This document shows, piece after piece, positions 21,556 to 64,000 of a stretch of DNA of 64,000 nt (positions are counted from its first letter, which is position 1; each line of letters begins with the position of its first letter). The DNA lies in NCBI RefSeq assembly GCF_021952865.1, contig NZ_CP040792.1:3100001-3164000 (forward strand). The letters are read 5' to 3'. A program made the translations under genes and the position numbers. The DNA is from Clavibacter californiensis (GTDB lineage: Bacteria > Actinomycetota > Actinomycetes > Actinomycetales > Microbacteriaceae). The notes below the pieces were generated by a model that saw nothing but the letters and a program-made list of their open reading frames with translations, searched no databases and was not told where the DNA came from.

Positions 21556-25167
<3,612 letters not shown>

Positions 25168-25234
25168 GAACACGTCCTTCAGATGGGGATGAGTGGCCCG
25201 CGCGCACCCCTTGCGACACGCGCGAATTCTCAAC

Positions 25235-25247
25235 ATACCCCGGGTAT
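25235..25247. promoter_or_regulatory. palindrome in the first subtilase promoter region
   Basis: ATACCC-C-GGGTAT, perfect 6-bp arms about one base, 68-80 bases upstream of the start codon. The minus-strand TATGTT overlapping its end could be a -10 box. Possible regulator site. Confidence 0.4.
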
Positions 25248-25473: not shown

Positions 25474-25515
25474 TCGCGCGATCAGCGCGATCCGCGCGGC
25501 TCGCGCGATCAGCGC
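25474..25515. repeat. 26-bp spaced direct repeat across a stop codon
   Basis: The 16-base sequence CTCGCGCGATCAGCGC occurs at 25474-25489 and again at 25500-25515. The second copy contains the TGA of the second subtilase gene (read on the minus strand). It looks like a small tandem duplication of the gene end. Confidence 0.7.
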
Positions 25516-28500
25516 ACGACGATCCTCTGCGCGCGGCTCGAGCCCCCGCCGACGAGGTCGTCGCCCGCGTACGACGCCTGCACCGTGCGGCTCCCCGGTG
25601 CGATGCCCGTGAGGTCCGCGCACCCGTCGCCCGAGCCGTCGAGGGGCACGTCGTGCTCCACGCCGTCCACGGTCACCCGCACCACCCCGGTGGCGGCCTG
25701 CTTCGCGGCCGACGTCACCGACACCTGCACGTGCACGCTCCCGCTCGCCGCGCCCCGCGGGTGCGTCGCCTGCAGGTGCACCGTCGCGACGTCCCGCGCG
25801 GTGATGGTCGGGCTCGTGGCGACGCCCGTCTGCCCGTCGGATGCGGTGGCCGTCACCTGGGCGGCGAGCGCCGTGCCCGCGACCGCCGAGGTCACGCGGA
25901 AGGTGGATCCCGTCGCCCCGGCGATCGGCGTGCCGTTGGACAGCCACTGCGTGGCCAGCGTGACGCCCTGCGGCGTCCACGCCCCCGTCGACGCCGTCAG
26001 CGTCCGCCCGACGTCGGGAGTGCCGCTGACCACGGGCGGCGCGCTCGACACGGGCGCGGCCGCCGCGGCCGGAGTCGTGACGTCGACCAGCGTCGTGGCG
26101 TCGGATCCCGCGTAGGACACCAGCCCGACGTAGTGCGCCCCCGCGTCGAGGCCCGACCACGACGCGCTGTACGTCGCCTTCCGTCCCGTCGTGACGGGCA
26201 GCTGCCGGGGCGTCACCCCGAAGGACCCCTGGCCGCCCGACGCGGTCACGTCGTAGCGGGTCAGGTCGACGTCCACCTGCTCTGCCGGCGCCGCGACCGA
26301 CTCCGTGGCCACCGACACGACGTACTGGCCCGCCGGGGCGTCCGGCACGACGATGCGCTCCGCGGCGGACGTGTTCGCCTCCAGGTCCAGCAGCGTGCGC
26401 GACCCGTCGGCGGCGACGCTCTCGAGCTGCATGGTCAGGTCGGATGCGCCGTCCCGCGGGGTCGCGTCGAGGACGAGCCCCTTCTCCCCCGCCGCGACGG
26501 TGATCGGCAGCGCGAACTGCTGCTCCGCCGCCATGGTCGCGGTGGGGCCCGACGGCGGGTCGGAGGGGTCGTGGAGCACGTGCCCCGCCGCCAGCCCCGC
26601 GGCCGTGAGGCCGATCCTGCCCGTGACGCCGGCGTCCACGGACACCGCCGCCTTCCCTGTGGTCCCGCTGCCCGACACCGACGCCGGCGCGTCGACCGCC
26701 TCCGGATGCACGGCCATCGGGCTGCGGACGGTGCCGCCGGGACCGGTCCAGGTGAGCGACCCGGTCGTCCAGCCGCCCGTCGGGACCCCGGCCTTCGCCG
26801 TGATGCGCACCTGGAAGGAGCGCGTCTGACCCGCCGCCGTGAAGGTCAGCTTCGCCGGGCTGATCCGCACGTCGGCACCGTCCACCCCCTGCACGGACGA
26901 GGTCCAGGTGCCCGCCGACTGCGAGGTCACGGTCCGCGTCACGGTCGTGCTCCCGATGAGCTTCCCGACCGCGATGCTCGGCAGGTTCAGCTGCGACACC
27001 GGCACCGCCGCCGCGGGATGCGGCAGCTCCAGGCCGGTCTGCGCGGCGTACCCCGCCCAGTCCTCCGGTCCGCTCGGGTACACGAGGCCCGGGTGCAGGA
27101 AGCGCGCCGGCGCGATCTGCCCGGCGCCCTGCGCGAAGGGATCCGCGGTGGCCTTCCCCTGGACGTCGAGGGTGTCCGTCGCCGTGGTCATCATCGCGGA
27201 CTTGATCTCCGACGGCGACGCCTTCGGGTGCACGCCGAGGTAGTCGAGCGCGAACCCGGCGATGTGCGGCGAGGACATCGAGGTCCCCGACAGCGTGGCG
27301 AAGCCCGGCTTCCCGGAGATGTCCGCGTACGCGGCGGGGATGCCGACGCCCGGCGCCGTGATGTCGGGCTTGATGATGTCCGAGCCGTCCGCCGTCTCGG
27401 GTCCGCGGGAGCTGAACCCGGCGACCTGCGGCGCCGGCTTCTCGACGCCCGTCGTGTTGCCGGGCGTGAGGGTCGCGGTGGCGCCGGCCTTCGCGGCGTA
27501 CGCGACGACCGCGGGACGCGCGTCGACGTCGAGGTGGACGGTCGGCACCGAGTGCGTGTCGAGGTCCTGGGAGGTCGCCGTCGTGTTCGTCAGGACCATC
27601 CCGATCCCGCCGGCCCGGAGGACCTCGGCGCTCTTGGCCACGCGGGCGCTGCCGCCGCGGTCGCACTGAACGATGCGTCCCTTCGTCTTGGCCGGGTCGA
27701 GAGTGCCCGTCCCGCACAGCTCGGGCTTCGCGGCGCCCGCGAGGCCCACCGCCGAAGCGCGGACGAACGGGCCGGAGACCTTCGTGGGGATCGTGACGGA
27801 TGCGCCCGCGAACTGCTGCCCGGATCCGAGCGTCAGCGTCGCGGAGTAGTTGGCCGGGACGCTGCTCGCGGCGACCGTGGTGATCCACGGGTCCAGGTTC
27901 GACACCGAGCCCGCCGCGGACCCCTCGTTCCCCGCGGCCGCGGCCACGAAGACCCCGGCGCTCGCCGCCCCCAGCAGGGCGCGCTGCTCGAAGTCCGGGG
28001 ACTTCCCGCTCCCACCCAGCGACATGTTGATCACGTCGGCGCCGTCGGCCGTCGCCTGGTCGATGGCCGCGACGATGTCGGAGATGACGCAGCCGTCGTC
28101 GGTCTCCTTCGTCAGGTCGGGTCCGGCCCAGCAGACCTTGTACGCGGCGATCTTCGCCGCGGGCGCGATGCCGGCGATGGTGTCGAGGGTCCTGCCCTGG
28201 ATCACGGCGGTGACGCCCGCGTCCCCTGCCGCGGTGCCCGCCGTGTGGGATCCGTGGCCCTCCGTGTCGCGCGTGGACCTCTTCTCCTGCGGCCCCAGGG
28301 GCTGACCGCTCGCGTCGCGTCCGGCGACGAAGGAGCGCGCGCCCACGATCTTCGTGGAGCAGTCGGACGCCGCGAACCCGTCGCCCGTCTCGCACGTCCC
28401 GTGGAACACGCTCCCGTCTGCCTTGCGGAACGCGATGCCCGTGCCATCGAGGTACGGCTCGCTCCCGGGCGTCGTCCCGAGGGGCGATCCCGCAAACGAC

Positions 28501-29105
28501 GCGTTGTCCGGGGCGATGCCCGTGTCGATGTCGGCGAGGACGGTCCCCGCACCGGCGCGGTCGGCCCCGCCGACGGCGTCCCAGAGGCCCCCGCTCTGCT
28601 CGAGCCCCAGGAAGCGCGAGTCGGGGTTCGACTGCGGGTGCACGGTCTGGTCGCGCTCGACGCTCAGCACGTCGGCGGACCGGCCGAGCGCGCGGACCTG
28701 CTCGGCGGTGAGCTCGGCCGAGAAGCCGTTCGTGGTGAGGGAGTACTCGTGCGTCGGCGTCACGCCGGCCGCGTCGGCGACCGAGCGATGCGCCGCGGCG
28801 AGGTGGTCGGCGTAGCGCTCGACGGCGTCCGACTGCGCGTCGAGACGGGCCCCGGCGTCGACCTTGGTGCGGGCGAGCCCGTCGAGGGTCCCGTCGTAGG
28901 TCGCGGCCGGCTGCTCCTTGAGCGTGACGAGGTAGTGGCCGTCCGTCGCGTCGAGCGGCACGGCCGCGTGCGGCAGGGCGGCCGCATCGGCCGCGGAGCC
29001 TCCGGCGGCGACGAGCGCGAACGCGAGGGCGCAGGCGGCAAGGGGATGTCCGGCGCGGAGCCGGCGCCTCCCGTCCGGCGGGAGCGGGTCTCGATGGATG
29101 GGCAT
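25509..29105 (-). CDS. secreted plant-subtilisin-like serine protease (S8A), second copy
   Basis: 1198 aa from ATG 29105 with an AGGAGGGA ribosome site. Same domain order as its neighbour: Sec signal (about 15-42), I9 pro-domain (about 55-155, H-Y-L-V-T-L), catalytic Asp194 (A-D-I-D-T-G), His284 (E-G-H-G-S-H), Asn393 (A-A-G-N-E-G) and Ser609 (S-G-T-S-M-S-S-P), a PA insert at about 445-535, and C-terminal beta domains ending R-I-V-V-R. The two proteins are clearly paralogous but well diverged, so the duplication is old. The terminator after this gene and the distinct upstream region of the first gene indicate separate control. Predicted extracellular protease; the substrate is unknown. Confidence 0.92.
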   Translation of the reverse strand: MPIHRDPLPPDGRRRLRAGHPLAACALAFALVAAGGSAADAAALPHAAVPLDATDGHYLVTLKEQPAATYDGTLDGLARTKVDAGARLDAQSDAVERYADHLAAAHRSVADAAGVTPTHEYSLTTNGFSAELTAEQVRALGRSADVLSVERDQTVHPQSNPDSRFLGLEQSGGLWDAVGGADRAGAGTVLADIDTGIAPDNASFAGSPLGTTPGSEPYLDGTGIAFRKADGSVFHGTCETGDGFAASDCSTKIVGARSFVAGRDASGQPLGPQEKRSTRDTEGHGSHTAGTAAGDAGVTAVIQGRTLDTIAGIAPAAKIAAYKVCWAGPDLTKETDDGCVISDIVAAIDQATADGADVINMSLGGSGKSPDFEQRALLGAASAGVFVAAAAGNEGSAAGSVSNLDPWITTVAASSVPANYSATLTLGSGQQFAGASVTIPTKVSGPFVRASAVGLAGAAKPELCGTGTLDPAKTKGRIVQCDRGGSARVAKSAEVLRAGGIGMVLTNTTATSQDLDTHSVPTVHLDVDARPAVVAYAAKAGATATLTPGNTTGVEKPAPQVAGFSSRGPETADGSDIIKPDITAPGVGIPAAYADISGKPGFATLSGTSMSSPHIAGFALDYLGVHPKASPSEIKSAMMTTATDTLDVQGKATADPFAQGAGQIAPARFLHPGLVYPSGPEDWAGYAAQTGLELPHPAAAVPVSQLNLPSIAVGKLIGSTTVTRTVTSQSAGTWTSSVQGVDGADVRISPAKLTFTAAGQTRSFQVRITAKAGVPTGGWTTGSLTWTGPGGTVRSPMAVHPEAVDAPASVSGSGTTGKAAVSVDAGVTGRIGLTAAGLAAGHVLHDPSDPPSGPTATMAAEQQFALPITVAAGEKGLVLDATPRDGASDLTMQLESVAADGSRTLLDLEANTSAAERIVVPDAPAGQYVVSVATESVAAPAEQVDVDLTRYDVTASGGQGSFGVTPRQLPVTTGRKATYSASWSGLDAGAHYVGLVSYAGSDATTLVDVTTPAAAAAPVSSAPPVVSGTPDVGRTLTASTGAWTPQGVTLATQWLSNGTPIAGATGSTFRVTSAVAGTALAAQVTATASDGQTGVATSPTITARDVATVHLQATHPRGAASGSVHVQVSVTSAAKQAATGVVRVTVDGVEHDVPLDGSGDGCADLTGIAPGSRTVQASYAGDDLVGGGSSRAQRIVVR

Positions 29106-29281
29106 GGCTGTTCCCTCCTGTCGCCGGCGTCTGCCGGCTGGTGGATCCGCGGGGCACGAGATGCGCAGGACGGCACGAGGCCCCTCGCGGAACCGCGTCA
29201 TCGACGCGATGGGCAGAACCGTAGGGAGGAAGCGACGGCGCCCGTCTGCCCTCTGCACACGCCAGGGGCGGTCCGTACGCA

Positions 29282-49806: not shown

Positions 49807-50628
49807 ATGAGCCCGAGGATGCATCCCGCGCGCCGGCGCGACGGGTCGATCCGGGACATCGCGGGCGAGGGCATCCTCCTGGCGGCGGGAGCGCGGGCGA
49901 TCCTGCTGCAGGTCGCCGACCCGTCCGTCGCGCGCGGCGTCGCGGAGCACAGCGACTTCGCGACGCGCCCGCTCGACCGGCTCGAAGGCACGCTCGAATA
50001 CATCTACGCCGTGGTGTTCGGCTCCCCCGAGGAAGTCGCGCGCGCACGGCGGATCGTCGGACGCGCGCACGCTCCGGTCCGGTCGGTGGTGCCCGCGGTG
50101 GACGGCTCCGCGCCGGCCTACTCCGCCTACGACCCGGAGCTGCAGCTCTGGGTGGCGGCGACGGTCTACCAGTCGGCCGTCACGATGTTCGAGCTCTGCT
50201 TCGGCCCGCTGCACGAGGAGGCCGCGGACAGGATCCACCGGCAGTACGCGGTCCTCGGCACGGCGCTGCAGGTGCCGGAGGGGATGTGGCCCGAGGACCG
50301 CGCGGCGTTCCGCGCCTACTGGGACGAGCGGATCGCGACGCTCGAGCCGACGGCGGATGCGCGTCGGATCGCCCGGACCCTGCTGGAGGGCCGCGGCGCG
50401 CCCGCGGCGGCCCGCGCGTTCATGCCGCTCCTCGCGCTGGTGACGGCCGGGCTCCTGCCGCCGCGGATCCGGGCCGGCTTCGGGATGCGGTGGGACGCGC
50501 GGATCGAGCGCCGCCACGCGCGCCTCCTCGCCCCCGTCCTCGCCGTGTACCGGGCGCTGCCGCGCGTCGTCCGCGAGGCGCCGCGCGCGATCGTCACCCG
50601 CAGGTACCTCCGCCGCGACGCCGGGTAG
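49807..50628 (+). CDS. DUF2236 (latex-clearing/MpaB-like) family protein
   Basis: 273 aa, GGGAG upstream of the ATG. The sequence has the oxygenase-MpaB/DUF2236 pattern: an early [25 protein letters not shown] segment, [15 protein letters not shown] near 58-72, then [12 protein letters not shown] near 109-120 and a mostly helical remainder. The expected haem-ligand His set is only partly evident to me. Function in this organism is unknown; relatives include rubber-cleaving and oxygenase proteins. Confidence 0.75.
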
Positions 50629-50730
50629 CCGTCGCCCGGCCGCTCCTGCACATGTGCACGGCCGCGGATCCCGTCCCCGGCTCGCCGACCTGCGTGCCGC
50701 GGCGCCGCGGTCGACCCGCATTGTGCGGCC

Positions 50731-52725
50731 ATGACTCGGAACCCCTCGGACCCGCACCCCTCTCCTTCATCAGCGCGATCCACGAATGACCGCCCGCCCC
50801 GTCGTCCGCGCATCGCACGGCTCGTGTCGGCGCTCGTCGGCGTCGGCCTCGCGTTCGGGCTCGCGGCGAGCGCCGTGCCGCCCGCGCAGGCTATGAGCGC
50901 TGTCTCGCACGGAGTCGGCTTCGCATCGGGGCCGGATGGCCGCTGGCTGGGCTCGTACCGGATGGACGACGGTCGGCTCGGCTTCTGCATCGACGTCGGG
51001 CTCGCCGCGCCGCCCGGGCACGCGTACTCCCCGGTCGGGGACGCGGGTGCATCACCCGAGGACCGGGCACGGCTCGCCTACGTCTCGAGGCGCTGGGCCG
51101 GATCCGCGGATCCTGACACCGCCGCGGCGGGGCAGCTCGCCACGTGGAGCATCACGGGCCTCGGCGCGCACGACCTCTCCTGGTACGCGGCGCGCGCCGG
51201 CGATCACGCGGGCGCAGTCGAGTCCCGCGCGCGCGACATGCTGGCAGAGACCACGGCCCGCGCGTCGCGCTCGGTGTCCGCGTCCGCGACGGTGACCCTC
51301 GGCGACGACGGGCGCGGGTCCGTGCGCGTCGACCTGCGGGCCGACCTCGTGACGGGCTGGCCCGCGGACGTGCCGGCCGGATCCGAGACCGGCACCGTCA
51401 CGCTCGACGGCGCCGTGTTCGACGACGGGAGCACGACCGCGCAGGTGGCGAACGGCGCAGCGGTGCCGCTGCGGGCGACCGGATCGTCGGCGGCGCTGCA
51501 CGTGACGGCGAGCGCCGTCTTCTCCTCCCTCCCGTACGGCGACGCCCTCGACGCGGTGGGCGATGACGGGGCGTCGCAGCGGATGATCCTGGCCCGGCCC
51601 GCGGACGCCCGAGCGGAGGCGCGGGCGGACGCGCAGGCGCCGAGCCCGCTCCCCTTCGCCCCGCGTGTCGTCACGCGCACCTCGCGCGCCGTGGCGTCCG
51701 TCGGCGACGAGCTGACGGACTCGCTCCAGGTGTCCGCGGATCCCGCGGCGCCCGCCGAACATGGGAGACCGGCGACCTCGGCTGGCTGGGGGCTGACCCG
51801 CGGAGACGACGGGGCCCTGGTGCCCGTGCCCGTCACCGTCCGCAGCAGGCTCCTCGGCCCCTTCACGGAGCAGGTCGGACCCGAGCGCGAGGACATCCCC
51901 GCCGGCGCCCCGGAGGTCTGCGAGGTCGTGACCCGCATCGACCACGGCCCGGGGGACTACACCTCGCCCGCCTGCCGCCTCGCGGCCGGCGGCTTCTACA
52001 CCTGGGTGGAGTCCATCTCACCCGAGGACACGGCCGTGCCAGCCGGGCGGGCACGGGTCCTGCCCTGGCAGTCGACCTTCGGCGCATCCACCGAGACGAC
52101 GCAGGTCCCGCAGCCGCCGCGGATCACGACGACCATCGGGGCGTCGGAGATCACGACGGGCAGCTGCCAGACCGACACGCTGCACGCGACGTCGTTCGTC
52201 GGGGTGAGCCCCGTCCCCGTGCGCATCCGCCTCGCGGGTCCGTTCGCGACCGCGCCCGCCGAGGGCGAGGCGGTGGCCGTCCCGGAGGGTGGAGCCTCAG
52301 GAGGGCTGGAGTCCGACGTCGATGTCTCCGATGACGGGGATGCGACCACGCCCTGCATGCGCGTCCTGTCGCCCGGGTGGTACGTCGCCGTCCTCGACAG
52401 TCCGGGGCGTCCCGCCGGCGACACGGACGGGGCGGCCATCGCGCCGTTCGCCGACCACACGGCGCACGCGAGCGAGACCTTCCACGCGGGACCGCCGCCC
52501 GCCGTCGACGTCCCCGCATCGCATGGGCACGCCCAGCTGGCCATGACGGGCGGAGCACCGGGCATCGACGTGCCGGGACCCGGGGCGACGCAGCGGATCG
52601 GCGCGCTGCCGCTCGCGTGCGCCGCGACCGCCATCGGTGCGCTGGGTGTCGCCGGCATCGGCGTTCGTCACGCTGGACGCCGCCGCCGTGTCCCGGCTAG
52701 AGCTTCTCGATGGGCGCGATCTTGA
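50731..52725 (+). CDS. LAxTG-anchored surface protein with possible thioester domain
   Basis: 664 aa. A signal peptide ends near residue 54 (long basic start, hydrophobic stretch, P-P-A-Q-A). Residues 60-170 carry G-F-C-I-D-V-G and, about 50 residues later, A-G-Q-L-A-T-W, a Cys/Gln pair like that of thioester (TQXA-type) adhesion domains. The middle has three beta-rich domains, each with paired Cys (C-E-V-V...A-C-R-L; C-Q-T-D...P-C-M-R). The C terminus shows L-A-M-T-G, then a hydrophobic helix (P-L-A-C-A-A-T-A-I-G-A-L-G-V-A) and a basic R-R-R-R tail, the class E sortase signal. Likely a cell-wall surface adhesin. The start has a poor ribosome site; the end overlaps antisense pcrA by 29 bases. 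Confidence 0.8.
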   Translation: MTRNPSDPHPSPSSARSTNDRPPRRPRIARLVSALVGVGLAFGLAASAVPPAQAMSAVSHGVGFASGPDGRWLGSYRMDDGRLGFCIDVGLAAPPGHAYSPVGDAGASPEDRARLAYVSRRWAGSADPDTAAAGQLATWSITGLGAHDLSWYAARAGDHAGAVESRARDMLAETTARASRSVSASATVTLGDDGRGSVRVDLRADLVTGWPADVPAGSETGTVTLDGAVFDDGSTTAQVANGAAVPLRATGSSAALHVTASAVFSSLPYGDALDAVGDDGASQRMILARPADARAEARADAQAPSPLPFAPRVVTRTSRAVASVGDELTDSLQVSADPAAPAEHGRPATSAGWGLTRGDDGALVPVPVTVRSRLLGPFTEQVGPEREDIPAGAPEVCEVVTRIDHGPGDYTSPACRLAAGGFYTWVESISPEDTAVPAGRARVLPWQSTFGASTETTQVPQPPRITTTIGASEITTGSCQTDTLHATSFVGVSPVPVRIRLAGPFATAPAEGEAVAVPEGGASGGLESDVDVSDDGDATTPCMRVLSPGWYVAVLDSPGRPAGDTDGAAIAPFADHTAHASETFHAGPPPAVDVPASHGHAQLAMTGGAPGIDVPGPGATQRIGALPLACAATAIGALGVAGIGVRHAGRRRRVPARASRWARS

Positions 52726-55147
52726 TGAGCAGCCGCTTGCGACCGGCCGGTCCGTCGAACTGCACCTCGGCGATGCGCTTGCGTCCCTCACCCGTGACGC
52801 CGGTCACGCGGCCGTCGCCGAAGTCGGTGTGGCGGATGCGGTCGCCGAACGCGAGCTCGAGGTCGCCGTTGTCGCGCACCTGGCCGGTGACCGTGTTGGC
52901 CCACTGGGTCTTGGGCCGGGGTGGCGGCGGCAGCGCCGGATCCTCGAAGCCGCTCGACGAGCGCGAGCGCGAGCCATACCCACCTCCCTCGCGCCGGGCG
53001 TTGAGGGCGCGGGGTTGGGTGCCACCGCGGGACGTGGCCATGCCGGGCGACTGCTTCCAGTCGATGAGCTCGGCGGGGATCTCCTGCAGGTACCGGCTGG
53101 GCATGGCGACGTTGACCTCGCCGAACTGGGCCCGTGTCATCGCCAGGGATATGAAGAGGCGCCGTCGAGCGCGCGTGATGCCGACGTAGAAGAGGCGCCG
53201 CTCCTCCGCCGGGCCGCCGGGCTCGTTGGCCGACATGCGGTGCGGCAGCAGGTCCTCCTCCACGCCGGTGAGGAAGACCGAGTCGTACTCCAGGCCCTTC
53301 GCCGTGTGGAGGGTCATGAGGGACACGGTGCCGCTCGAGTCGTCGAGCTCATCCGCCGCGGCGACGAGCGAGACCTCCGTCAGGAAGTCCACCAGCTGGC
53401 CCTCCGGGTTGTTGCGCGAGAACTCCTTCGTGACGGCGACGAGCTCCTCGACGTTCTCCGCGCGGGCCTCGTCCTGCGCGTCCTTGCTCGCCCGGAGCGC
53501 TTGCACCAGGCCGCTCTTCTCCAGCAGCGTGGTCACCAGGTCGCCGACGGAGGTGCGTCCCTCTGGGCGGTCGGGATCCAGCAGGAGCGCCACCTCGTCG
53601 AGCATGCGGGAGAGAGTGAGGATCGCCTGCGTCACCTTGGGCCCGAGTCCCAGCTCGGACGCACGGCGCATCGCCTCCCGGAAGGTGACGCCGTGCGACT
53701 CGGCGAAGTTCGCGAGGGCGGTCTCCGTGGCCGGGCCGATGCCGCGCTTCGGGGTGTTCAGGATGCGGCGCAGCGCCAGCACGTCCGCGGGGTTGGCGAC
53801 GGCGATCAGGTACGCCATGGCGTCCTTGATCTCCGCCCGCTCGTAGAACTTCGTGCCGCCCATGATCCGGTAGGGCACGGCCGAGCGGATGAGGATCTCC
53901 TCGAGCGCTCGCGTCTGCGCGTTCGTGCGATAGAAGACCGCGATCTCCGAGTAGGCGGTGCCCTCCTCGTGCAGCTTCTGGATCTCGTCGGCGACGAACT
54001 GCGCCTCGTCGTGCCCCGAGTACCCCGTGAATCCGACGATCTTGTCGCCGTCGCCGATGGAGGTCCACAGCTTCTTGTCCTTGCGGTCGAAGTTGTTCGA
54101 GATGACGGCGTTGGCGGCGGTGAGTATGTTCTGGGTCGACCGGTAGTTCTGCTCGAGGAGCACGACCTTCGACTGCGGGAAGTCGCGCTCGAACTCGGTG
54201 ATGTTGCGGATGTCGGCGCCGCGGAAGGCGTAGATGGACTGGTCGCTGTCGCCCACGACGGTGAGCGAGGCCCCGTCGATCCCGCCCATGCCGTTCGTGG
54301 ACATGCGGGTGTCGACGGGCACGTCCTCGGGGGCCACGGCACGCGTCAGCTCGCGGATGAGCGAGTACTGGGCGTGGTTCGTGTCCTGGTACTCGTCCAC
54401 GAGCACGTGCCGGAAGCGCCGCTGGTACAGCGCCGCCACCTTGGGGAAGGCGCGGAAGAGGTAGACGGTCTGGCCTATGAGGTCGTCGAAGTCGAAGGCG
54501 TTGGCGGCAGCGAGGGAGCGCGTGTACTGCCGGAAGATCTCCACGAACATGGCCTCGGCCGGATCGTTGAAGTTCGCCGTGCGCGCGAACGTGTCCGCGT
54601 CCGACAGCTCGTTCTTGAGCTTCGAGATGCGGCCCGACACCGACGAGACGGTGAAGCCGAGCGTGTCCGCGTCGAGCTGCTTGATGATCCGCTTGATGAG
54701 CACGCGGCTGTCGGCGGAGTCGTAGATGGTGAAGTTCTGCGTGAAGCCGAACGCCTCCGCCTCGCGTCGGAGGATGCGCACGCACGCGGAGTGGAAGGTC
54801 GAGATCCACATGCCCTCGGACGCCTGCCCGAGGAGCGACTCGACGCGCTCGCGCATCTCGGCGGCGGCCTTGTTCGTGAAGGTGATGGCGAGGATCTGGC
54901 TCGGCCACGCCTCCCGGGACTCGATGAGGCTCGCGATGCGGTGCGTGAGCACGCGCGTCTTGCCGGAACCGGCGCCCGCCACGATGAGCAGCGCGGGACC
55001 CCGGTAGACGACGGCCTCCCGCTGCTCCGGGTTGAGGCCCTCCAGCAGCGGATCCTCCGGAGCCCCCGGCCCTCCAGCGGCACCCGACCGGCCGTCGAGG
55101 ATGATCGGCGTGCTGGAGGGGGAGATGGCGGCGGGGTCGGAACTCAT
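52697..55147 (-). CDS. pcrA: ATP-dependent DNA helicase PcrA/UvrD, left copy
   Basis: 816 aa superfamily 1A 3'-5' helicase for DNA repair and replication restart. Walker A is A-G-A-G-S-G-K-T at 57-64; other motifs are A-I-T-F-T-N-K-A-A (Ia), V-D-E-Y-Q-D-T-N (II), V-V-G-D-S-D-Q-S-I-Y-A-F-R-G-A (III), E-Q-N-Y-R-S (IV), T-L-H-T-A-K-G-L-E (V) and F-Y-V-G-I-T-R-A-R (VI). The C-terminal Tudor-like tail (G-D-R-I-R-H-T-D-F-G) is the RNA-polymerase-binding part. TAGGAT at 55163-55158 lies ten bases before the ATG, so a leaderless start is likely. Its first 298 codons recur in mirror orientation at 63106-64000. Confidence 0.96.
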   Translation of the reverse strand: MSSDPAAISPSSTPIILDGRSGAAGGPGAPEDPLLEGLNPEQREAVVYRGPALLIVAGAGSGKTRVLTHRIASLIESREAWPSQILAITFTNKAAAEMRERVESLLGQASEGMWISTFHSACVRILRREAEAFGFTQNFTIYDSADSRVLIKRIIKQLDADTLGFTVSSVSGRISKLKNELSDADTFARTANFNDPAEAMFVEIFRQYTRSLAAANAFDFDDLIGQTVYLFRAFPKVAALYQRRFRHVLVDEYQDTNHAQYSLIRELTRAVAPEDVPVDTRMSTNGMGGIDGASLTVVGDSDQSIYAFRGADIRNITEFERDFPQSKVVLLEQNYRSTQNILTAANAVISNNFDRKDKKLWTSIGDGDKIVGFTGYSGHDEAQFVADEIQKLHEEGTAYSEIAVFYRTNAQTRALEEILIRSAVPYRIMGGTKFYERAEIKDAMAYLIAVANPADVLALRRILNTPKRGIGPATETALANFAESHGVTFREAMRRASELGLGPKVTQAILTLSRMLDEVALLLDPDRPEGRTSVGDLVTTLLEKSGLVQALRASKDAQDEARAENVEELVAVTKEFSRNNPEGQLVDFLTEVSLVAAADELDDSSGTVSLMTLHTAKGLEYDSVFLTGVEEDLLPHRMSANEPGGPAEERRLFYVGITRARRRLFISLAMTRAQFGEVNVAMPSRYLQEIPAELIDWKQSPGMATSRGGTQPRALNARREGGGYGSRSRSSSGFEDPALPPPPRPKTQWANTVTGQVRDNGDLELAFGDRIRHTDFGDGRVTGVTGEGRKRIAEVQFDGPAGRKRLLIKIAPIEKL

Positions 55148-55172
55148 GTCGGCATCGATCCTAGGCGCTGCC

Positions 55173-55275
55173 CCCGACGCGGAGTCGGGCGCCGACCGGA
55201 GCCGGTCGCCGACGCCGAGCCGGGCCCCGACGCGGAGCCGGGCCGGTGCGGACGCAAGGCCGGTGCGGACGCAGG
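55173..55275. repeat. degenerate 18-bp hairpin repeats between phosphodiesterase gene and pcrA
   Basis: About six units with a 17-18-base period. The first is CCCGAC-GCGGA-GTCGGG, itself a perfect hairpin; later ones decay to GGTGCGGACGCA types. The cluster lies after the phosphodiesterase stop and just before the pcrA promoter, so it may act as terminator and insulator. The mirror copy is at about 62978-63080. Confidence 0.6.
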
Positions 55276-55296
55276 GCCGTGCCGATGAGACGCGCC

Positions 55297-56346
55297 CTAG
55301 CTCCCCGCGGCCGAGGCCCTCTCCCCCACGAGCCGGACCGCGAGATCCGGATGGTCGACGAATACGCCGTCGACACCCGCGTCGAGAAGCCGACCCCAGT
55401 GCGTGCCGAAGTCGCCGTGCGCGGACTTCGCATCGGGGCTGCGGAGGGACCGGGGCAGGAACGCGTTCTCGGGGCGCAGCGTCCAGGTGAAGACGGACAG
55501 GCCGGCCCGGTGAGCGCGCTCGACGAGGTCGGACACGGGAGCGGACTCGTCAGCTGAGCCGAAGCCGTCGGCCCGGCAGATGCGCTCGACGCCCACGCTG
55601 ATCCCATCCACCTCGGCGGCGAGCGCCGCGAGTCCCGCGTCGGTCAGCTGCTCCTCGAACGTGACGGCCGAGTCGCCGTGACGCGCGACCTCGTCGATCG
55701 CCGCGCCGCGCCCCTCGAGGAGGTACACGAGGCGCGCCGCGATGCCGTGCGCCCGGACGCCGAGGAGCGCGCTCCGCTCGAAGGACTCGATCGTGAGGCG
55801 CGACGCGTCGTCCGCCCACCCGTGCTCGCGGAGGTCGCGGGCGAGCAGCTCGTCGAGCGGCATGCCGAGCGCGGCGAAGTGCGTGGCGTGCTTGATCTCC
55901 GCGACCATGCCGAGCGGGCGACCGTGACGCGCCGACTCCTGGTCGATGATCCGCAGCAGGTCGGACAGGGAGAGCACGGTCTCCTCGTCGTCGTGGGCCG
56001 CGCTGTCCGGCCGGGCCGAGGGCACCCGCTCCCGGCAGCGGAGCGTGCGGATCTCGGCCCACGTCATGTCCTCCGTGAACCAGCCCGCGCGCTCCACGCC
56101 GTCGACGACGCGCGTGGCACGGCGGTCGGCGAACTCCGGGCGATCGGCGACGTCGGTCGTGCCCGACAGCTCGTTCTCGTGCCGGATGACGAGTACCCCG
56201 TCGGAGGAGGCGACGAGGTCGGGTTCGACGGCGTCCGCGCCCTGCGCGAAGCCGAGCCGCACGGCGGCGGCGGAGTGCTCGGGGCGGTAGCCGCTGGCTC
56301 CGCGATGGGCGATGACGAGGGGGCGGGGGCGAGGGGCGTGATCCAC
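55297..56346 (-). CDS. glycerophosphodiester phosphodiesterase, left copy
   Basis: 349 aa from GTG 56346, seven bases after TAGCGT (a GTG at 56355 would overlap that box). TIM-barrel GDPD enzyme cleaving glycerophosphodiesters to glycerol-3-phosphate and an alcohol. The N-terminal A-H-R-G-A-S-G-Y-R-P-E-H has the catalytic His and metal Glu; E-P-D-L-V-A-S-S-D-G-V-L-V-I-R-H has the second set; V-A-E-I-K-H and F-T-W-T-L-R-P-E-N complete the barrel. No signal peptide, so cytoplasmic. Likely leaderless. The protein matches the right-arm copy throughout. Confidence 0.93.
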   Translation of the reverse strand: MDHAPRPRPLVIAHRGASGYRPEHSAAAVRLGFAQGADAVEPDLVASSDGVLVIRHENELSGTTDVADRPEFADRRATRVVDGVERAGWFTEDMTWAEIRTLRCRERVPSARPDSAAHDDEETVLSLSDLLRIIDQESARHGRPLGMVAEIKHATHFAALGMPLDELLARDLREHGWADDASRLTIESFERSALLGVRAHGIAARLVYLLEGRGAAIDEVARHGDSAVTFEEQLTDAGLAALAAEVDGISVGVERICRADGFGSADESAPVSDLVERAHRAGLSVFTWTLRPENAFLPRSLRSPDAKSAHGDFGTHWGRLLDAGVDGVFVDHPDLAVRLVGERASAAGS

Positions 56347-56487
56347 GCCGGGCACGCTACATGCGCCGGGTGGACGGCGAGCGCGTACTCATCTGAGGAA
56401 ATGCACGGCCCACGCGAGTGGTCTCCCAGCCTGGCCAGCTAAATTGGTCATCAATCACGTTCAACCACCATTGAGAGTAGAAGGACC

Positions 56488-57294
56488 ATGGCCAACCCCA
56501 CGTTCTCCAACAACCCGGTCTTCAACGGCCGGGGTGCGACGCCCACGAGGGATGTGACCCCGGAGAGCCTCGACGAGCTGTACGCCCGCCCGTCCGCGAC
56601 GGCCTCCGAGACCGACCGGATGACCTTCGAGGACACGACCGTCAAGACGGTCAGCCTGCTCGCCATCGTCGTCGTGCTCGGCGCCGTCGCGTGGCTCTCG
56701 GGCCCGCTCGCCCTCCCCCTCGCCATGCTCCGGCGCCATCGGCGGCCTCGTGCTCGGCCTCGTCAACTCCTTCAAGAAGGAGCCGTCCGTCCCGCTCATC
56801 GTCGCGTACGCCGCGTTCGAGGGGCTATTCGTCGGCGGCATCTCGCGCGTCTTCGACAGCCTCTACCCCGGCGTCGCCACCCAGGCCGTCCTCGGCACCG
56901 CGGGCCGTTCTTCGCAACCGTCCTCCTGCTCTTCCGCAGCGGCAAGATCCGCGCCTCCGCCAAGGCCACCAAGATCTTCATGATCGCCATGGTCGGCTAC
57001 CTGGTGTTCTCGCTCGCCAACTTCGCGCTCACGGCCTTCGGGGTCTTCGACAGCCCGTTCGGCCTGCGCAGCGAGACCATCGCGGGCATCCCGCTCGGCG
57101 TCATCGTCGGTCTCTTCGTGGTGTTGCTGGCGTCGTACTCGCTGGTGCTCGACTTCGACTTCATCCAGCGCGGCGTCCGCGCCGGCGCTCCCCGCAAGTA
57201 CGGCTGGACCGCGGCCTTCGGCCTCGTCGTCACCATCGTGTGGCTGTACGTCGAGCTGCTCCGCATCTTCGCGATCCTGCGCGGCAACAACTAG
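56488..57294 (+). pseudogene. Bax-inhibitor-1/YccA-like membrane protein, frameshifted left copy
   Basis: Compared with the intact right-arm copy, this copy has an extra C at about 56730, an extra G at about 56903 and an extra T at about 56909. The first shifts the frame and the second pair restores it, so about 60 codons in the middle read as Arg-rich nonsense (R-R-H-R-R-P-R-A-R) instead of membrane helices, while both ends are normal. Each insertion lengthens a run of the same base, the usual form of a sequencing error. If real, the protein would lose about two helices and be non-functional. Confidence 0.85.
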
Positions 57295-57334
57295 CACCAC
57301 AGCAGGTCCCTGGCACAGCACCGCGGACCGGCAG

Positions 57335-57376
57335 CACGACGAAGGCCGCTCCCCTCGGGGAGCGGCCTTCGTCGTG
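57335..57376. terminator. bidirectional hairpin terminator, left copy
   Basis: A perfect long stem (CACGACGAAGGCCGCTCCCC with its complement, 20 bp) around a 2-base centre, in the gap between the convergent Bax-inhibitor-like and guaA genes. Confidence 0.85.
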
Positions 57377-57402
57377 TCAGCGCCGGAGCGCGAGCGGGAG
57401 GA

Positions 57403-58979
<1,577 letters not shown>

Positions 58980-58983
<4 letters not shown>

Positions 58984-59180
58984 GGGGTGGCCTCCGTGGT
59001 GGTGGTCGGGTCGATGGGTCGGGGGTCCGCGTCGTCGCGGTCGTCGCGGTCGTCGCGGTCGTCGCGGTCGTCGCGGTCGTCGCGGTCGTCGCGGTCGTCG
59101 GCGGACGTGCTCGCACGGCGGGGAGCCTCGAGCTTCGCGATGACCTCCCGCACCCGGCGGGCGATGCGCGCCTCGACGAC
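58980..59180 (-). CDS. C-terminal fragment of the gene upstream of guaA, with Asp-Asp-Arg repeat tail
   Basis: Minus-strand frame that ends at the TGA overlapping the guaA TTG. From the hinge it reads [27 protein letters not shown], then seven D-D-R units, then [16 protein letters not shown]. The helical charged part looks like real coding sequence. The N-terminal body is missing because the hinge of the palindrome cuts the gene. In actinobacteria a DUF3817 membrane protein often precedes guaA, but nothing visible here proves that identity. Confidence 0.6.
59032..59100. repeat. 9-bp tandem repeat, left side of the hinge
   Basis: Seven full TCGTCGCGG units plus a partial one, encoding D-D-R on the minus strand. 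Confidence 0.95.
59101..59174. other. unique hinge spacer of the giant palindrome
   Basis: About 74 bases present only once, between the two arms. It reads as coding sequence on the minus strand in frame with the gene upstream of guaA, and joins the right arm inside a GACGAC microhomology, so the crossover point cannot be fixed more exactly than within the repeat. Confidence 0.85.
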
Positions 59181-59225
59181 CGCGACGACCGCGACGACCG
59201 CGACGACCGCGACGACCGCGACGAC
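59175..59225. repeat. 9-bp tandem repeat, right side of the hinge
   Basis: Five D-D-R-coding units plus D-D on the plus strand, mirror of the left repeat but two units shorter because the hinge lies inside it. Confidence 0.95.
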
Positions 59226-59272
59226 GCGGACCCCCGACCCATCGACCCGACCACCACCACGGAGGCCACCCC

Positions 59273-60853
<1,581 letters not shown>

Positions 60854-60879
60854 TCCTCCCGCTCGCGCTCCGGCGCTGA

Positions 60880-60921
60880 CACGACGAAGGCCGCTCCCCG
60901 AGGGGAGCGGCCTTCGTCGTG
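60880..60921. terminator. bidirectional hairpin terminator, right copy
   Basis: Mirror copy of the 57335-57376 hairpin, 20-bp perfect stem, between guaA and the Bax-inhibitor-like gene. Confidence 0.85.
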
Positions 60922-60961
60922 CTGCCGGTCCGCGGTGCTGTGCCAGGGACCTGCTGTGGTG

Positions 60962-61765
60962 CTAGTTGTTGCCGCGCAGGATCGCGAAGATGCGGAGCAG
61001 CTCGACGTACAGCCACACGATGGTGACGACGAGGCCGAAGGCCGCGGTCCAGCCGTACTTGCGGGGAGCGCCGGCGCGGACGCCGCGCTGGATGAAGTCG
61101 AAGTCGAGCACCAGCGAGTACGACGCCAGCAACACCACGAAGAGACCGACGATGACGCCGAGCGGGATGCCCGCGATGGTCTCGCTGCGCAGGCCGAACG
61201 GGCTGTCGAAGACCCCGAAGGCCGTGAGCGCGAAGTTGGCGAGCGAGAACACCAGGTAGCCGACCATGGCGATCATGAAGATCTTGGTGGCCTTGGCGGA
61301 GGCGCGGATCTTGCCGCTGCGGAAGAGCAGGAGGACGGTTGCGAAGACGGCCGCGGTGCCGAGGACGGCCTGGGTGGCGACGCCGGGGTAGAGGCTGTCG
61401 AAGACGCGCGAGATGCCGCCGACGAATAGCCCCTCGAACGCGGCGTACGCGACGATGAGCGGGACGGACGGCTCCTTCTTGAAGGAGTTGACGAGGCCGA
61501 GCACGAGGCCGCCGATGGCGCCGAGCATGGCGAGGGGGAGGGCGAGCGGGCCCGAGAGCCACGCGACGGCGCCGAGCACGACGACGATGGCGAGCAGGCT
61601 GACCGTCTTGACGGTCGTGTCCTCGAAGGTCATCCGGTCGGTCTCGGAGGCCGTCGCGGACGGGCGGGCGTACAGCTCGTCGAGGCTCTCCGGGGTCACA
61701 TCCCTCGTGGGCGTCGCACCCCGGCCGTTGAAGACCGGGTTGTTGGAGAACGTGGGGTTGGCCAT
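60962..61765 (-). CDS. Bax-inhibitor-1/YccA-like membrane protein, intact right copy
   Basis: 267 aa, with an AGAAGGA ribosome site before the ATG at 61765. Residues 1-50 are polar (F-N-G-R-G-A-T-P-T-R-D-V-T-P), then seven hydrophobic helices from about 55 to 260. Recognisable segments are V-L-G-L-V-N-S-F-K-K-E, A-A-F-E-G-L-F-V-G-G-I-S-R-V-F near 115-130, and the late L-D-F-D-F-I-Q-R-G-V with its conserved Asp pair. The Bax-inhibitor-1 fold includes calcium-leak channels, but the role of the bacterial protein is not settled. This copy shows what the broken left copy should encode. Confidence 0.9.
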   Translation of the reverse strand: MANPTFSNNPVFNGRGATPTRDVTPESLDELYARPSATASETDRMTFEDTTVKTVSLLAIVVVLGAVAWLSGPLALPLAMLGAIGGLVLGLVNSFKKEPSVPLIVAYAAFEGLFVGGISRVFDSLYPGVATQAVLGTAAVFATVLLLFRSGKIRASAKATKIFMIAMVGYLVFSLANFALTAFGVFDSPFGLRSETIAGIPLGVIVGLFVVLLASYSLVLDFDFIQRGVRAGAPRKYGWTAAFGLVVTIVWLYVELLRIFAILRGNN

Positions 61766-61906
61766 GGTCCTTCTACTCTCAATGGTGGTTGAACGTGATT
61801 GATGACCAATTTAGCTGGCCAGGCTGGGAGACCACTCGCGTGGGCCGTGCATTTCCTCAGATGAGTACGCGCTCGCCGTCCACCCGGCGCATGTAGCGTG
61901 CCCGGC

Positions 61907-62956
61907 GTGGATCACGCCCCTCGCCCCCGCCCCCTCGTCATCGCCCATCGCGGAGCCAGCGGCTACCGCCCCGAGCACTCCGCCGCCGCCGTGCGGCTCG
62001 GCTTCGCGCAGGGCGCGGACGCCGTCGAACCCGACCTCGTCGCCTCCTCCGACGGGGTACTCGTCATCCGGCACGAGAACGAGCTGTCGGGCACGACCGA
62101 CGTCGCCGATCGCCCGGAGTTCGCCGACCGCCGTGCCACGCGCGTCGTCGACGGCGTGGAGCGCGCGGGCTGGTTCACGGAGGACATGACGTGGGCCGAG
62201 ATCCGCACGCTCCGCTGCCGGGAGCGGGTGCCCTCGGCCCGGCCGGACAGCGCGGCCCACGACGACGAGGAGACCGTGCTCTCCCTGTCCGACCTGCTGC
62301 GGATCATCGACCAGGAGTCGGCGCGTCACGGTCGCCCGCTCGGCATGGTCGCGGAGATCAAGCACGCCACGCACTTCGCCGCGCTCGGCATGCCGCTCGA
62401 CGAGCTGCTCGCCCGCGACCTCCGCGAGCACGGGTGGGCGGACGACGCGTCGCGCCTCACGATCGAGTCCTTCGAGCGGAGCGCGCTCCTCGGCGTCCGG
62501 GCGCACGGCATCGCGGCGCGCCTCGTGTACCTCCTCGAGGGGCGCGGCGCGGCGATCGACGAGGTCGCGCGTCACGGCGACTCGGCCGTCACGTTCGAGG
62601 AGCAGCTGACCGACGCGGGACTCGCGGCGCTCGCCGCCGAGGTGGATGGGATCAGCGTGGGCGTCGAGCGCATCTGCCGGGCCGACGGCTTCGGCTCAGC
62701 TGACGAGTCCGCTCCCGTGTCCGACCTCGTCGAGCGCGCTCACCGGGCCGGCCTGTCCGTCTTCACCTGGACGCTGCGCCCCGAGAACGCGTTCCTGCCC
62801 CGGTCCCTCCGCAGCCCCGATGCGAAGTCCGCGCACGGCGACTTCGGCACGCACTGGGGTCGGCTTCTCGACGCGGGTGTCGACGGCGTATTCGTCGACC
62901 ATCCGGATCTCGCGGTCCGGCTCGTGGGGGAGAGGGCCTCGGCCGCGGGGAGCTAG
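61907..62956 (+). CDS. glycerophosphodiester phosphodiesterase, right copy
   Basis: 349 aa, same protein as the left-arm gene, with the A-H-R-G-A-S catalytic motif near the N terminus. The start GTG and its TAGCGT box are mirrored from 56346. Confidence 0.92.
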   Translation: MDHAPRPRPLVIAHRGASGYRPEHSAAAVRLGFAQGADAVEPDLVASSDGVLVIRHENELSGTTDVADRPEFADRRATRVVDGVERAGWFTEDMTWAEIRTLRCRERVPSARPDSAAHDDEETVLSLSDLLRIIDQESARHGRPLGMVAEIKHATHFAALGMPLDELLARDLREHGWADDASRLTIESFERSALLGVRAHGIAARLVYLLEGRGAAIDEVARHGDSAVTFEEQLTDAGLAALAAEVDGISVGVERICRADGFGSADESAPVSDLVERAHRAGLSVFTWTLRPENAFLPRSLRSPDAKSAHGDFGTHWGRLLDAGVDGVFVDHPDLAVRLVGERASAAGS

Positions 62957-63105
62957 GGCGCGTCTCATCGGCACGGCCCTGCGTCCGCACCGGCCTTGCG
63001 TCCGCACCGGCCCGGCTCCGCGTCGGGGCCCGGCTCGGCGTCGGCGACCGGCTCCGGTCGGCGCCCGACTCCGCGTCGGGGGCAGCGCCTAGGATCGATG
63101 CCGAC

Positions 63106-64000
63106 ATGAGTTCCGACCCCGCCGCCATCTCCCCCTCCAGCACGCCGATCATCCTCGACGGCCGGTCGGGTGCCGCTGGAGGGCCGGGGGCTCCGGAGGA
63201 TCCGCTGCTGGAGGGCCTCAACCCGGAGCAGCGGGAGGCCGTCGTCTACCGGGGTCCCGCGCTGCTCATCGTGGCGGGCGCCGGTTCCGGCAAGACGCGC
63301 GTGCTCACGCACCGCATCGCGAGCCTCATCGAGTCCCGGGAGGCGTGGCCGAGCCAGATCCTCGCCATCACCTTCACGAACAAGGCCGCCGCCGAGATGC
63401 GCGAGCGCGTCGAGTCGCTCCTCGGGCAGGCGTCCGAGGGCATGTGGATCTCGACCTTCCACTCCGCGTGCGTGCGCATCCTCCGACGCGAGGCGGAGGC
63501 GTTCGGCTTCACGCAGAACTTCACCATCTACGACTCCGCCGACAGCCGCGTGCTCATCAAGCGGATCATCAAGCAGCTCGACGCGGACACGCTCGGCTTC
63601 ACCGTCTCGTCGGTGTCGGGCCGCATCTCGAAGCTCAAGAACGAGCTGTCGGACGCGGACACGTTCGCGCGCACGGCGAACTTCAACGATCCGGCCGAGG
63701 CCATGTTCGTGGAGATCTTCCGGCAGTACACGCGCTCCCTCGCTGCCGCCAACGCCTTCGACTTCGACGACCTCATAGGCCAGACCGTCTACCTCTTCCG
63801 CGCCTTCCCCAAGGTGGCGGCGCTGTACCAGCGGCGCTTCCGGCACGTGCTCGTGGACGAGTACCAGGACACGAACCACGCCCAGTACTCGCTCATCCGC
63901 GAGCTGACGCGTGCCGTGGCCCCCGAGGACGTGCCCGTCGACACCCGCATGTCCACGAACGGCATGGGCGGGATCGACGGGGCCTCGCTCACCGTCGTGG
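63106..64000 (+). CDS. pcrA: DNA helicase PcrA/UvrD, right copy, cut by the window end
   Basis: First 298 codons of pcrA, running off the right edge after I-D-G-A-S-L-T-V-V. Walker A, motif Ia and motif II (V-D-E-Y-Q-D-T-N) are present and match the left copy. Whether the palindrome continues through the whole gene cannot be seen. The TAGGAT box ten bases before the ATG is also mirrored. Confidence 0.93.
   Translation, partial: MSSDPAAISPSSTPIILDGRSGAAGGPGAPEDPLLEGLNPEQREAVVYRGPALLIVAGAGSGKTRVLTHRIASLIESREAWPSQILAITFTNKAAAEMRERVESLLGQASEGMWISTFHSACVRILRREAEAFGFTQNFTIYDSADSRVLIKRIIKQLDADTLGFTVSSVSGRISKLKNELSDADTFARTANFNDPAEAMFVEIFRQYTRSLAAANAFDFDDLIGQTVYLFRAFPKVAALYQRRFRHVLVDEYQDTNHAQYSLIRELTRAVAPEDVPVDTRMSTNGMGGIDGASLTVV

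What the first reader, a model, noticed from the sequence alone, without database searches (positions are those of the whole stretch)
54253..64000. Near-perfect giant palindrome of at least 4.8 kb per arm
guaA, a Bax-inhibitor-like gene, a GDPD gene and the start of pcrA appear twice as mirror images around a 74-base spacer. Perfect palindromes this long are normally unstable in bacteria, and the duplicated genes are ordinary housekeeping genes. The arms differ only by homopolymer-type insertions and repeat copy number as far as I can read. The hinge lies in a 9-bp repeat with microhomology. A fold-back long read, whole-genome-amplification chimera or assembler inversion explains this best. 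A real recent inverted duplication, possibly mid-amplification, is the exciting alternative.
Basis: partly seen in the sequence, partly recalled or inferred. Interest (0 to 1): 0.75.

Follow-up and report, generated by a model that had tools for sequence, protein, structure and literature searches.

The report
Fold-back error at a contig end
The giant mirror-image repeat is really in the deposited sequence, but it sits at the raw end of a contig from a bacterial chromosome that was not closed into a circle, and it is most likely a fold-back sequencing or assembly error rather than real DNA.

Summary
The palindrome is real as sequence and longer than reported: arms of about 6.3 kb, the second running to the last base of contig C1 (3,165,486 bases), 1,486 bases past the window. 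No unique DNA lies beyond it. The first 1,941 bases of the same contig are identical to window 57239-59179, then continue through a DUF3817 gene. That continuation is the arrangement in 17 of 17 other genomes of the genus (Clavibacter), each with one full-length match. So C1 looks like an unclosed circular chromosome with overlapping ends, and everything after 59179 is a fold-back overhang. At the switch point the last six bases, CGACGA, are complementary to a 9-bp repeat about 90 bases upstream, as expected of a 3' end that snapped back and primed on itself. The exact 25-base junction occurs once in this genome and in none of 17 relatives. Each arm has private indels that no relative examined shares, as in imperfectly polished long-read consensus. 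Best reading: a fold-back chimera at a contig end (0.93). A true tandem-inversion duplication would give the same contig ends and cannot be excluded without reads (about 0.04).

The parts
52769..59082 (+). Left arm: ordinary chromosome order pcrA (-), GDPD (-), Bax-inhibitor-like (+), guaA (-)
   Evidence: collinear with relatives
59174..64000 (-). Right arm: mirror copy, continuing 1,486 bases past the window to the last base of contig C1
59083..59173 (.). Loop between the arms (91 bases by strict pairing); genomic sequence from the 3' part of the DUF3817 gene
59174..59179 (.). Switch point: six-base overlap CGACGA shared by the true upstream sequence and the fold-back
   Evidence: of the 15 relatives that matched the hinge query at their own guaA locus, 14 matches stop at 59179/59180 and one (G017, 78%) runs to 59215
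59031..59099 (.). 9-bp tandem repeat (GTCGTCGCG, 7 units), coding a DDR repeat in the tail of the DUF3817 protein
59174..59225 (.). Mirror of the 9-bp repeat with 5 units
57239..59179 (+). Stretch identical to C1:1-1941, i.e. the overlap of the contig's two ends
57403..58983 (-). guaA (GMP synthase), left copy
   Evidence: mirror copy scanned
59273..60853 (+). guaA, mirror copy
56488..57294 (+). Bax-inhibitor-like gene, left copy; reading frame disturbed between two private indels
60962..61765 (-). Bax-inhibitor-like gene, mirror copy, open frame of 267 aa
55297..56355 (-). GDPD gene, left copy
61898..62956 (+). GDPD gene, mirror copy
52697..55147 (-). pcrA/uvrD-type helicase gene, left copy, 816 aa
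63106..64000 (+). pcrA mirror copy, cut off by the contig end before the stop codon; has two private extra bases beyond the window

Best explanation
This is not a feature of the chromosome. It is a fold-back (palindromic) chimera at the raw end of an unclosed long-read contig. Shown: contig C1 has overlapping ends, its start holds the normal arrangement, and the mirror arm runs to the contig's last base with no unique sequence beyond. Inferred: in one or a few library molecules a 3' end at window 59179 (ending CGACGA) snapped back onto a TCGTCG of the 9-bp repeat about 90 bases upstream and was extended, or a polymerase switched strand there during amplification. The molecule was then read through both strands, and the assembler used it to extend the contig by about 6.3 kb instead of closing the circle. 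That the assembly is from long reads is itself inferred from its two-contig state.
For: Arm ends exactly at the contig end. C1:1-1941 is identical to window 57239-59179 and then runs on through the DUF3817 gene. DUF3817-spacer-guaA-bax-GDPD is collinear in 17 of 17 relatives, with pcrA too in 15 of 17. One full-length match to guaA 5' end plus DUF3817 in each of the 17. No inverted self-match over 91 bases in the 17 relative stretches fetched. The exact junction 25-mer occurs once in this genome and in 0 of 17 relatives; 8 of 17 have a two-mismatch look-alike, each at another place than the guaA locus. Private indels on both arms: 0 of 15 relatives share the right-arm pcrA insertions, 0 of 17 the left-arm Bax insertions. 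dnaA lies at 0.407 Mb, so the contig was not rotated to start at the origin. Fold-back reads are documented: about 0.55-0.6% of ONT genomic reads (PMC12870357, passages) and 0.18-7.33% inverted repeats in nanopore ligation libraries (PMC13141652, abstract and passages). Near-identical overlaps at contig ends of circles are often found (PMC4699355, passages).
Against: No reads, coverage or assembly metadata could be seen, and the platform is unknown; PMC12870357 saw virtually no fold-back reads in PacBio HiFi data, so on that platform the artefact would be less likely. A tandem-inversion duplication would give the same two contig ends, and PMC4699355 warns that overlapping contig ends do not prove a circle, since contigs often break at repeats. 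The private indels are not confined to the overhang: the left arm has some too. The snap-back step rests on a six-base match inside a repeat that offers many such sites; the folded single strand is no more stable than shuffles (z 0.19). One relative (G017) gave a weak 78% match running past the switch point to query 115; I take it as chance similarity of GC-rich repeats and did not follow it up.
Confidence: 0.93

Rival explanations
1. A real tandem-inversion duplication (forward, inverted, forward copies), formed in the cell by the same snap-back priming and caught in the sequenced culture; the assembler could not pass the second junction, so one contig end shows the first two copies and the other end part of the third.
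For: Predicts the same contig-end layout: left flank plus copy plus inverted copy at one end, copy plus right flank at the other. The six-base switch with a short loop suits snap-back synthesis. Such structures are on record in Salmonella (Kugelberg et al. 2010, seen only as a reference-list entry and not held; its content is recalled).
Against: Needs a second junction that is not in the assembly's C1 ends. PMC5345009 states that even small inverted repeats are generally unstable in circular bacterial genomes (passage), and this genome has one SbcD homologue over the family cut-off (hairpin cleavage by SbcCD is recalled). No benefit from extra guaA or pcrA is evident. Absent from 17 relatives, though that says little about a recent event.
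Confidence: 0.04
2. A linear chromosome with a covalently closed hairpin end, read round the turn.
For: A palindrome at a contig end is what a hairpin telomere would give (recalled).
Against: The sequence is continuous through this point at the other end of the same contig and in 17 of 17 relatives; the loop is coding sequence of a conserved gene.
Confidence: 0.01
3. A stable natural large inverted repeat, like those at the replication terminus of Lactobacillus delbrueckii ssp. bulgaricus.
For: Natural large inverted repeats are reported: 38-76 kb at the terminus of 5 of 5 L. bulgaricus chromosomes, and smaller ones (repeats of 8.7 and 9.4 kb, not at the terminus) in a Streptococcus suis and a Magnetospirillum genome (PMC5345009, abstract and passages).
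Against: It lies about 405 kb from dnaA, far from the terminus expected opposite dnaA (no whole-genome skew was computed), its spacer is 91 bases rather than 1-8.8 kb, and it has no unique flank on one side.
Confidence: 0.01

Closest known systems
Fold-back / palindromic read artefacts of long-read libraries
   Same: Second segment maps to about the same place (within 200 bases) on the opposite strand; near-perfect mirror; no foreign sequence at the junction. [quoted passage not shown]
   Different: Here carried into an assembled contig end rather than seen in a read; platform unknown
Palindromes from whole-genome amplification, as corrected by Pacasus
   Same: Inverted copy next to its source (PMC6218980, abstract and passages)
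   Different: Nothing shows that this DNA was amplified; no second case at the start of C1 or in C2
Tandem-inversion duplication / inverted triplication
   Same: Forward-inverted-forward layout is compatible with the contig ends
   Different: Second junction not seen; no coverage evidence
Large terminus inverted repeats of L. delbrueckii ssp. bulgaricus
   Same: Large inverted repeat in a bacterial chromosome
   Different: Position, spacer length and missing outer flank

Membership tests
Fold-back read or assembly artefact | Mirror copy lies within 200 bases of its source on the opposite strand | tested here: met
   91-base loop
Fold-back read or assembly artefact | No unique sequence beyond the second arm (arm ends with the contig) | tested here: met
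Fold-back read or assembly artefact | The uninterrupted arrangement is present elsewhere in the same assembly | tested here: met
   C1:1-2338
Fold-back read or assembly artefact | Hinge supported only by symmetrical palindromic reads | not testable with these tools
   no raw reads available
Tandem-inversion duplication | Two junctions, one at each side of the inverted copy | tested here: inconclusive
   only one junction in the contig; the other would lie in the gap between contig ends
Tandem-inversion duplication | Raised copy number of the region | not testable with these tools
   no coverage data
Large terminus inverted repeat (L. bulgaricus type) | Located at the replication terminus | tested here: not met
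   dnaA at 0.407 Mb, palindrome about 405 kb away across the contig ends; terminus taken as opposite dnaA
Hairpin telomere | Chromosome ends at the hinge | tested here: not met
   the other contig end and 17 of 17 relatives continue through it

The most novel reading that the evidence does not exclude
The sequenced culture really carried a tandem-inversion duplication of a pcrA-GDPD-bax-guaA segment of at least 6.3 kb, born by snap-back priming at an expanded 9-bp repeat, with the second junction hidden in the contig gap.
Probability: 0.04. Interest if true: 0.5.

Novelty: not a real feature. Interest (0 to 1): 0.07.

Why it matters
As an artefact it matters only for data quality: about 6.3 kb at the end of this contig would be counted as second copies of guaA, a Bax-inhibitor gene, a GDPD gene and most of pcrA, and the circle was left open. 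A simple check (mirror arm ending exactly at the contig end, with overlapping contig ends) would flag such cases in genome scans. If it were real, it would be a natural example of an early step of inverted gene amplification in an actinobacterium.

Tried and rejected
Terminus inverted repeat: rejected on position. Hairpin telomere: rejected on the contig-end overlap and relatives. An inherited inverted duplication: rejected, 17 of 17 relatives have one full-length copy of the guaA-DUF3817 stretch. A strong DNA hairpin at the hinge driving the fold-back: the single strand up to 59179 folds no better than shuffles (z 0.19), so no support. Contig C2 has no overlapping ends and no repeated or inverted stretch at the sensitivity used, so it gives no second example. 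Inverted self-matches in the first 20 kb of C1 are only the 42-base palindrome and one place of 28 bases. A similarity search with the first 20 kb of C2 hit 44 plasmid records (26 Clavibacter, 14 Curtobacterium, 4 others), none covering 80% of the query; it did not name the strain. Paper searches: 15 of 208 listed; 15 of 630; 15 of 129; 10 of 32,456; nothing bacterial of use among those listed. Base composition over 50000-64000 showed nothing that I use.

Full report
Observation. The window lies at C1:3100001-3164000 of a two-contig genome (3,243,492 bases). The inverted arms are there as described. Contig C1 is 3,165,486 bases long, so only 1,486 bases remain after the window, and these continue the mirror copy: the palindrome runs from window 52769 to the last base of the contig. 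The arms are about 6.3 kb. Strict pairing ends at 59082 and 59174, with a 91-base loop; the 9-bp repeat has 7 units on the left and 5 on the right. Apart from the hinge there are four places of difference: an extra G at each of two sites in the right-arm pcrA copy, and one extra C plus a 2-base insertion with two adjacent changes in the left-arm Bax-inhibitor gene.

The other end of the contig. The first 1,941 bases of C1 are identical to window 57239-59179 and then depart. There the contig start goes on through a gene for a 198-residue DUF3817 protein, while the window folds back. The two ends of C1 therefore overlap as the ends of an unclosed circular chromosome do, and the part after 59179 is an overhang. 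dnaA is at 0.407 Mb, so the contig was not rotated to start at dnaA, and the palindrome is about 405 kb from dnaA, not at the terminus expected opposite it (no whole-genome skew was computed).

Relatives. In stretches taken from all 17, GDPD, bax, guaA, spacer and DUF3817 are collinear in 17 of 17. pcrA is in place in 15 of 17: L050 is a short contig that ends first, and L044 (G011) has no pcrA match in a stretch that reaches about 4 kb past its GDPD gene. None of the 17 stretches shows an inverted self-match longer than 91 bases; 16 show only a 36-43-base palindrome, and one (L044) a 90-base pair.

The junction. With the hinge (window 59101-59230) as query, 16 of 18 genomes match at E <= 1e-15, 15 of them relatives; G013 and G014 do not reach the threshold. 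Of the 15 relatives, 14 matches at the guaA locus stop at query 79 or 80 (59179/59180), and one, G017, is a weak 78% match to query 115; G005 has a second match to the repeat alone. The exact 25-base junction occurs once in this genome and in 0 of 17 relatives; 8 of 17 relatives have a copy with two mismatches, each at another place than their guaA locus. The genus is called Clavibacter because two named Clavibacter contigs have the same lengths as G003 and G013 contigs.

Which arm is odd. At the two pcrA sites 0 of 15 relatives share the right arm's extra base; at the two Bax-inhibitor sites 0 of 17 share the left arm's insertions. L044 has an extra base of its own nearby. So each arm has private frame-disturbing indels in conserved genes, which fits imperfectly polished long-read consensus. 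It does not show which arm came first, and it counts against a simple picture in which only the overhang is of low quality.

Mechanism. Shown: the switch lies at 59179/59180 with a six-base overlap, CGACGA, between the straight-on and the folded sequence. Its complement TCGTCG recurs through the 9-bp repeat upstream. Inferred: a 3' end snapped back about 90 bases and was extended, or a polymerase switched strand during amplification. The predicted single-strand fold is not unusually stable, so the short match permits the step rather than proves it. Fold-back reads make up about 0.55-0.6% of ONT genomic reads and can tangle assembly graphs, while virtually none were seen in PacBio HiFi data (PMC12870357, passages). 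Nanopore ligation libraries of microbial and human standards gave 0.18-7.33% inverted repeats (PMC13141652, abstract and passages). Whole-genome amplification gives palindromic reads too (PMC6218980, abstract and passages). Contigs of circular molecules often have near-identical overlapping ends, though such overlaps alone do not prove a circle (PMC4699355, passages).

What is left open. A genuine tandem-inversion duplication would also leave left flank, copy and inverted copy at one contig end, and copy with right flank at the other, so contig layout alone does not decide. I hold it unlikely (0.04) because fold-back reads are common on some platforms, no second junction is seen, even small inverted repeats are called generally unstable in circular bacterial genomes (PMC5345009, passage), and this genome has an SbcD homologue (the role of SbcCD is recalled). 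Mapping raw reads would settle it.

Verdict. Low interest beyond data quality.

Noticed in passing
window 59031-59099 (and C1:1793-1861): The 9-bp repeat codes a run of DDR units in the tail of the DUF3817 protein just before guaA. This genome has seven GTCGTCGCG units; the 14 of 17 relatives whose tail my pattern could read have none or one DDR by a simple count. It looks like a lineage-specific repeat expansion.
   Followed up: partly
window 21556-25236 and 25509-29258 (- strand): Two neighbouring genes for large subtilisin-like proteases (Peptidase_S8 with PA, I9 and fn3 domains), about 72% identical in DNA over 1.9 kb, presumably a tandem duplication.
   Followed up: partly
window 57335-57376 (mirror 60880-60921): A 42-base near-perfect palindrome between the convergent bax and guaA genes; a 36-43-base palindrome is found in 16 of 17 relative stretches, perhaps a two-way terminator.
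   Followed up: partly
window 56730-56908: The left-arm Bax-inhibitor gene has two frame-disturbing insertions that 0 of 17 relatives share, although the left arm belongs to the main part of the contig; the base quality of this assembly near its end seems limited.
   Followed up: partly
L044 (G011:C2:569000-578500): In this one relative no pcrA match lies next to the GDPD gene although the fetched stretch reaches about 4 kb past it; a rearrangement, loss or assembly break there.
   Followed up: no
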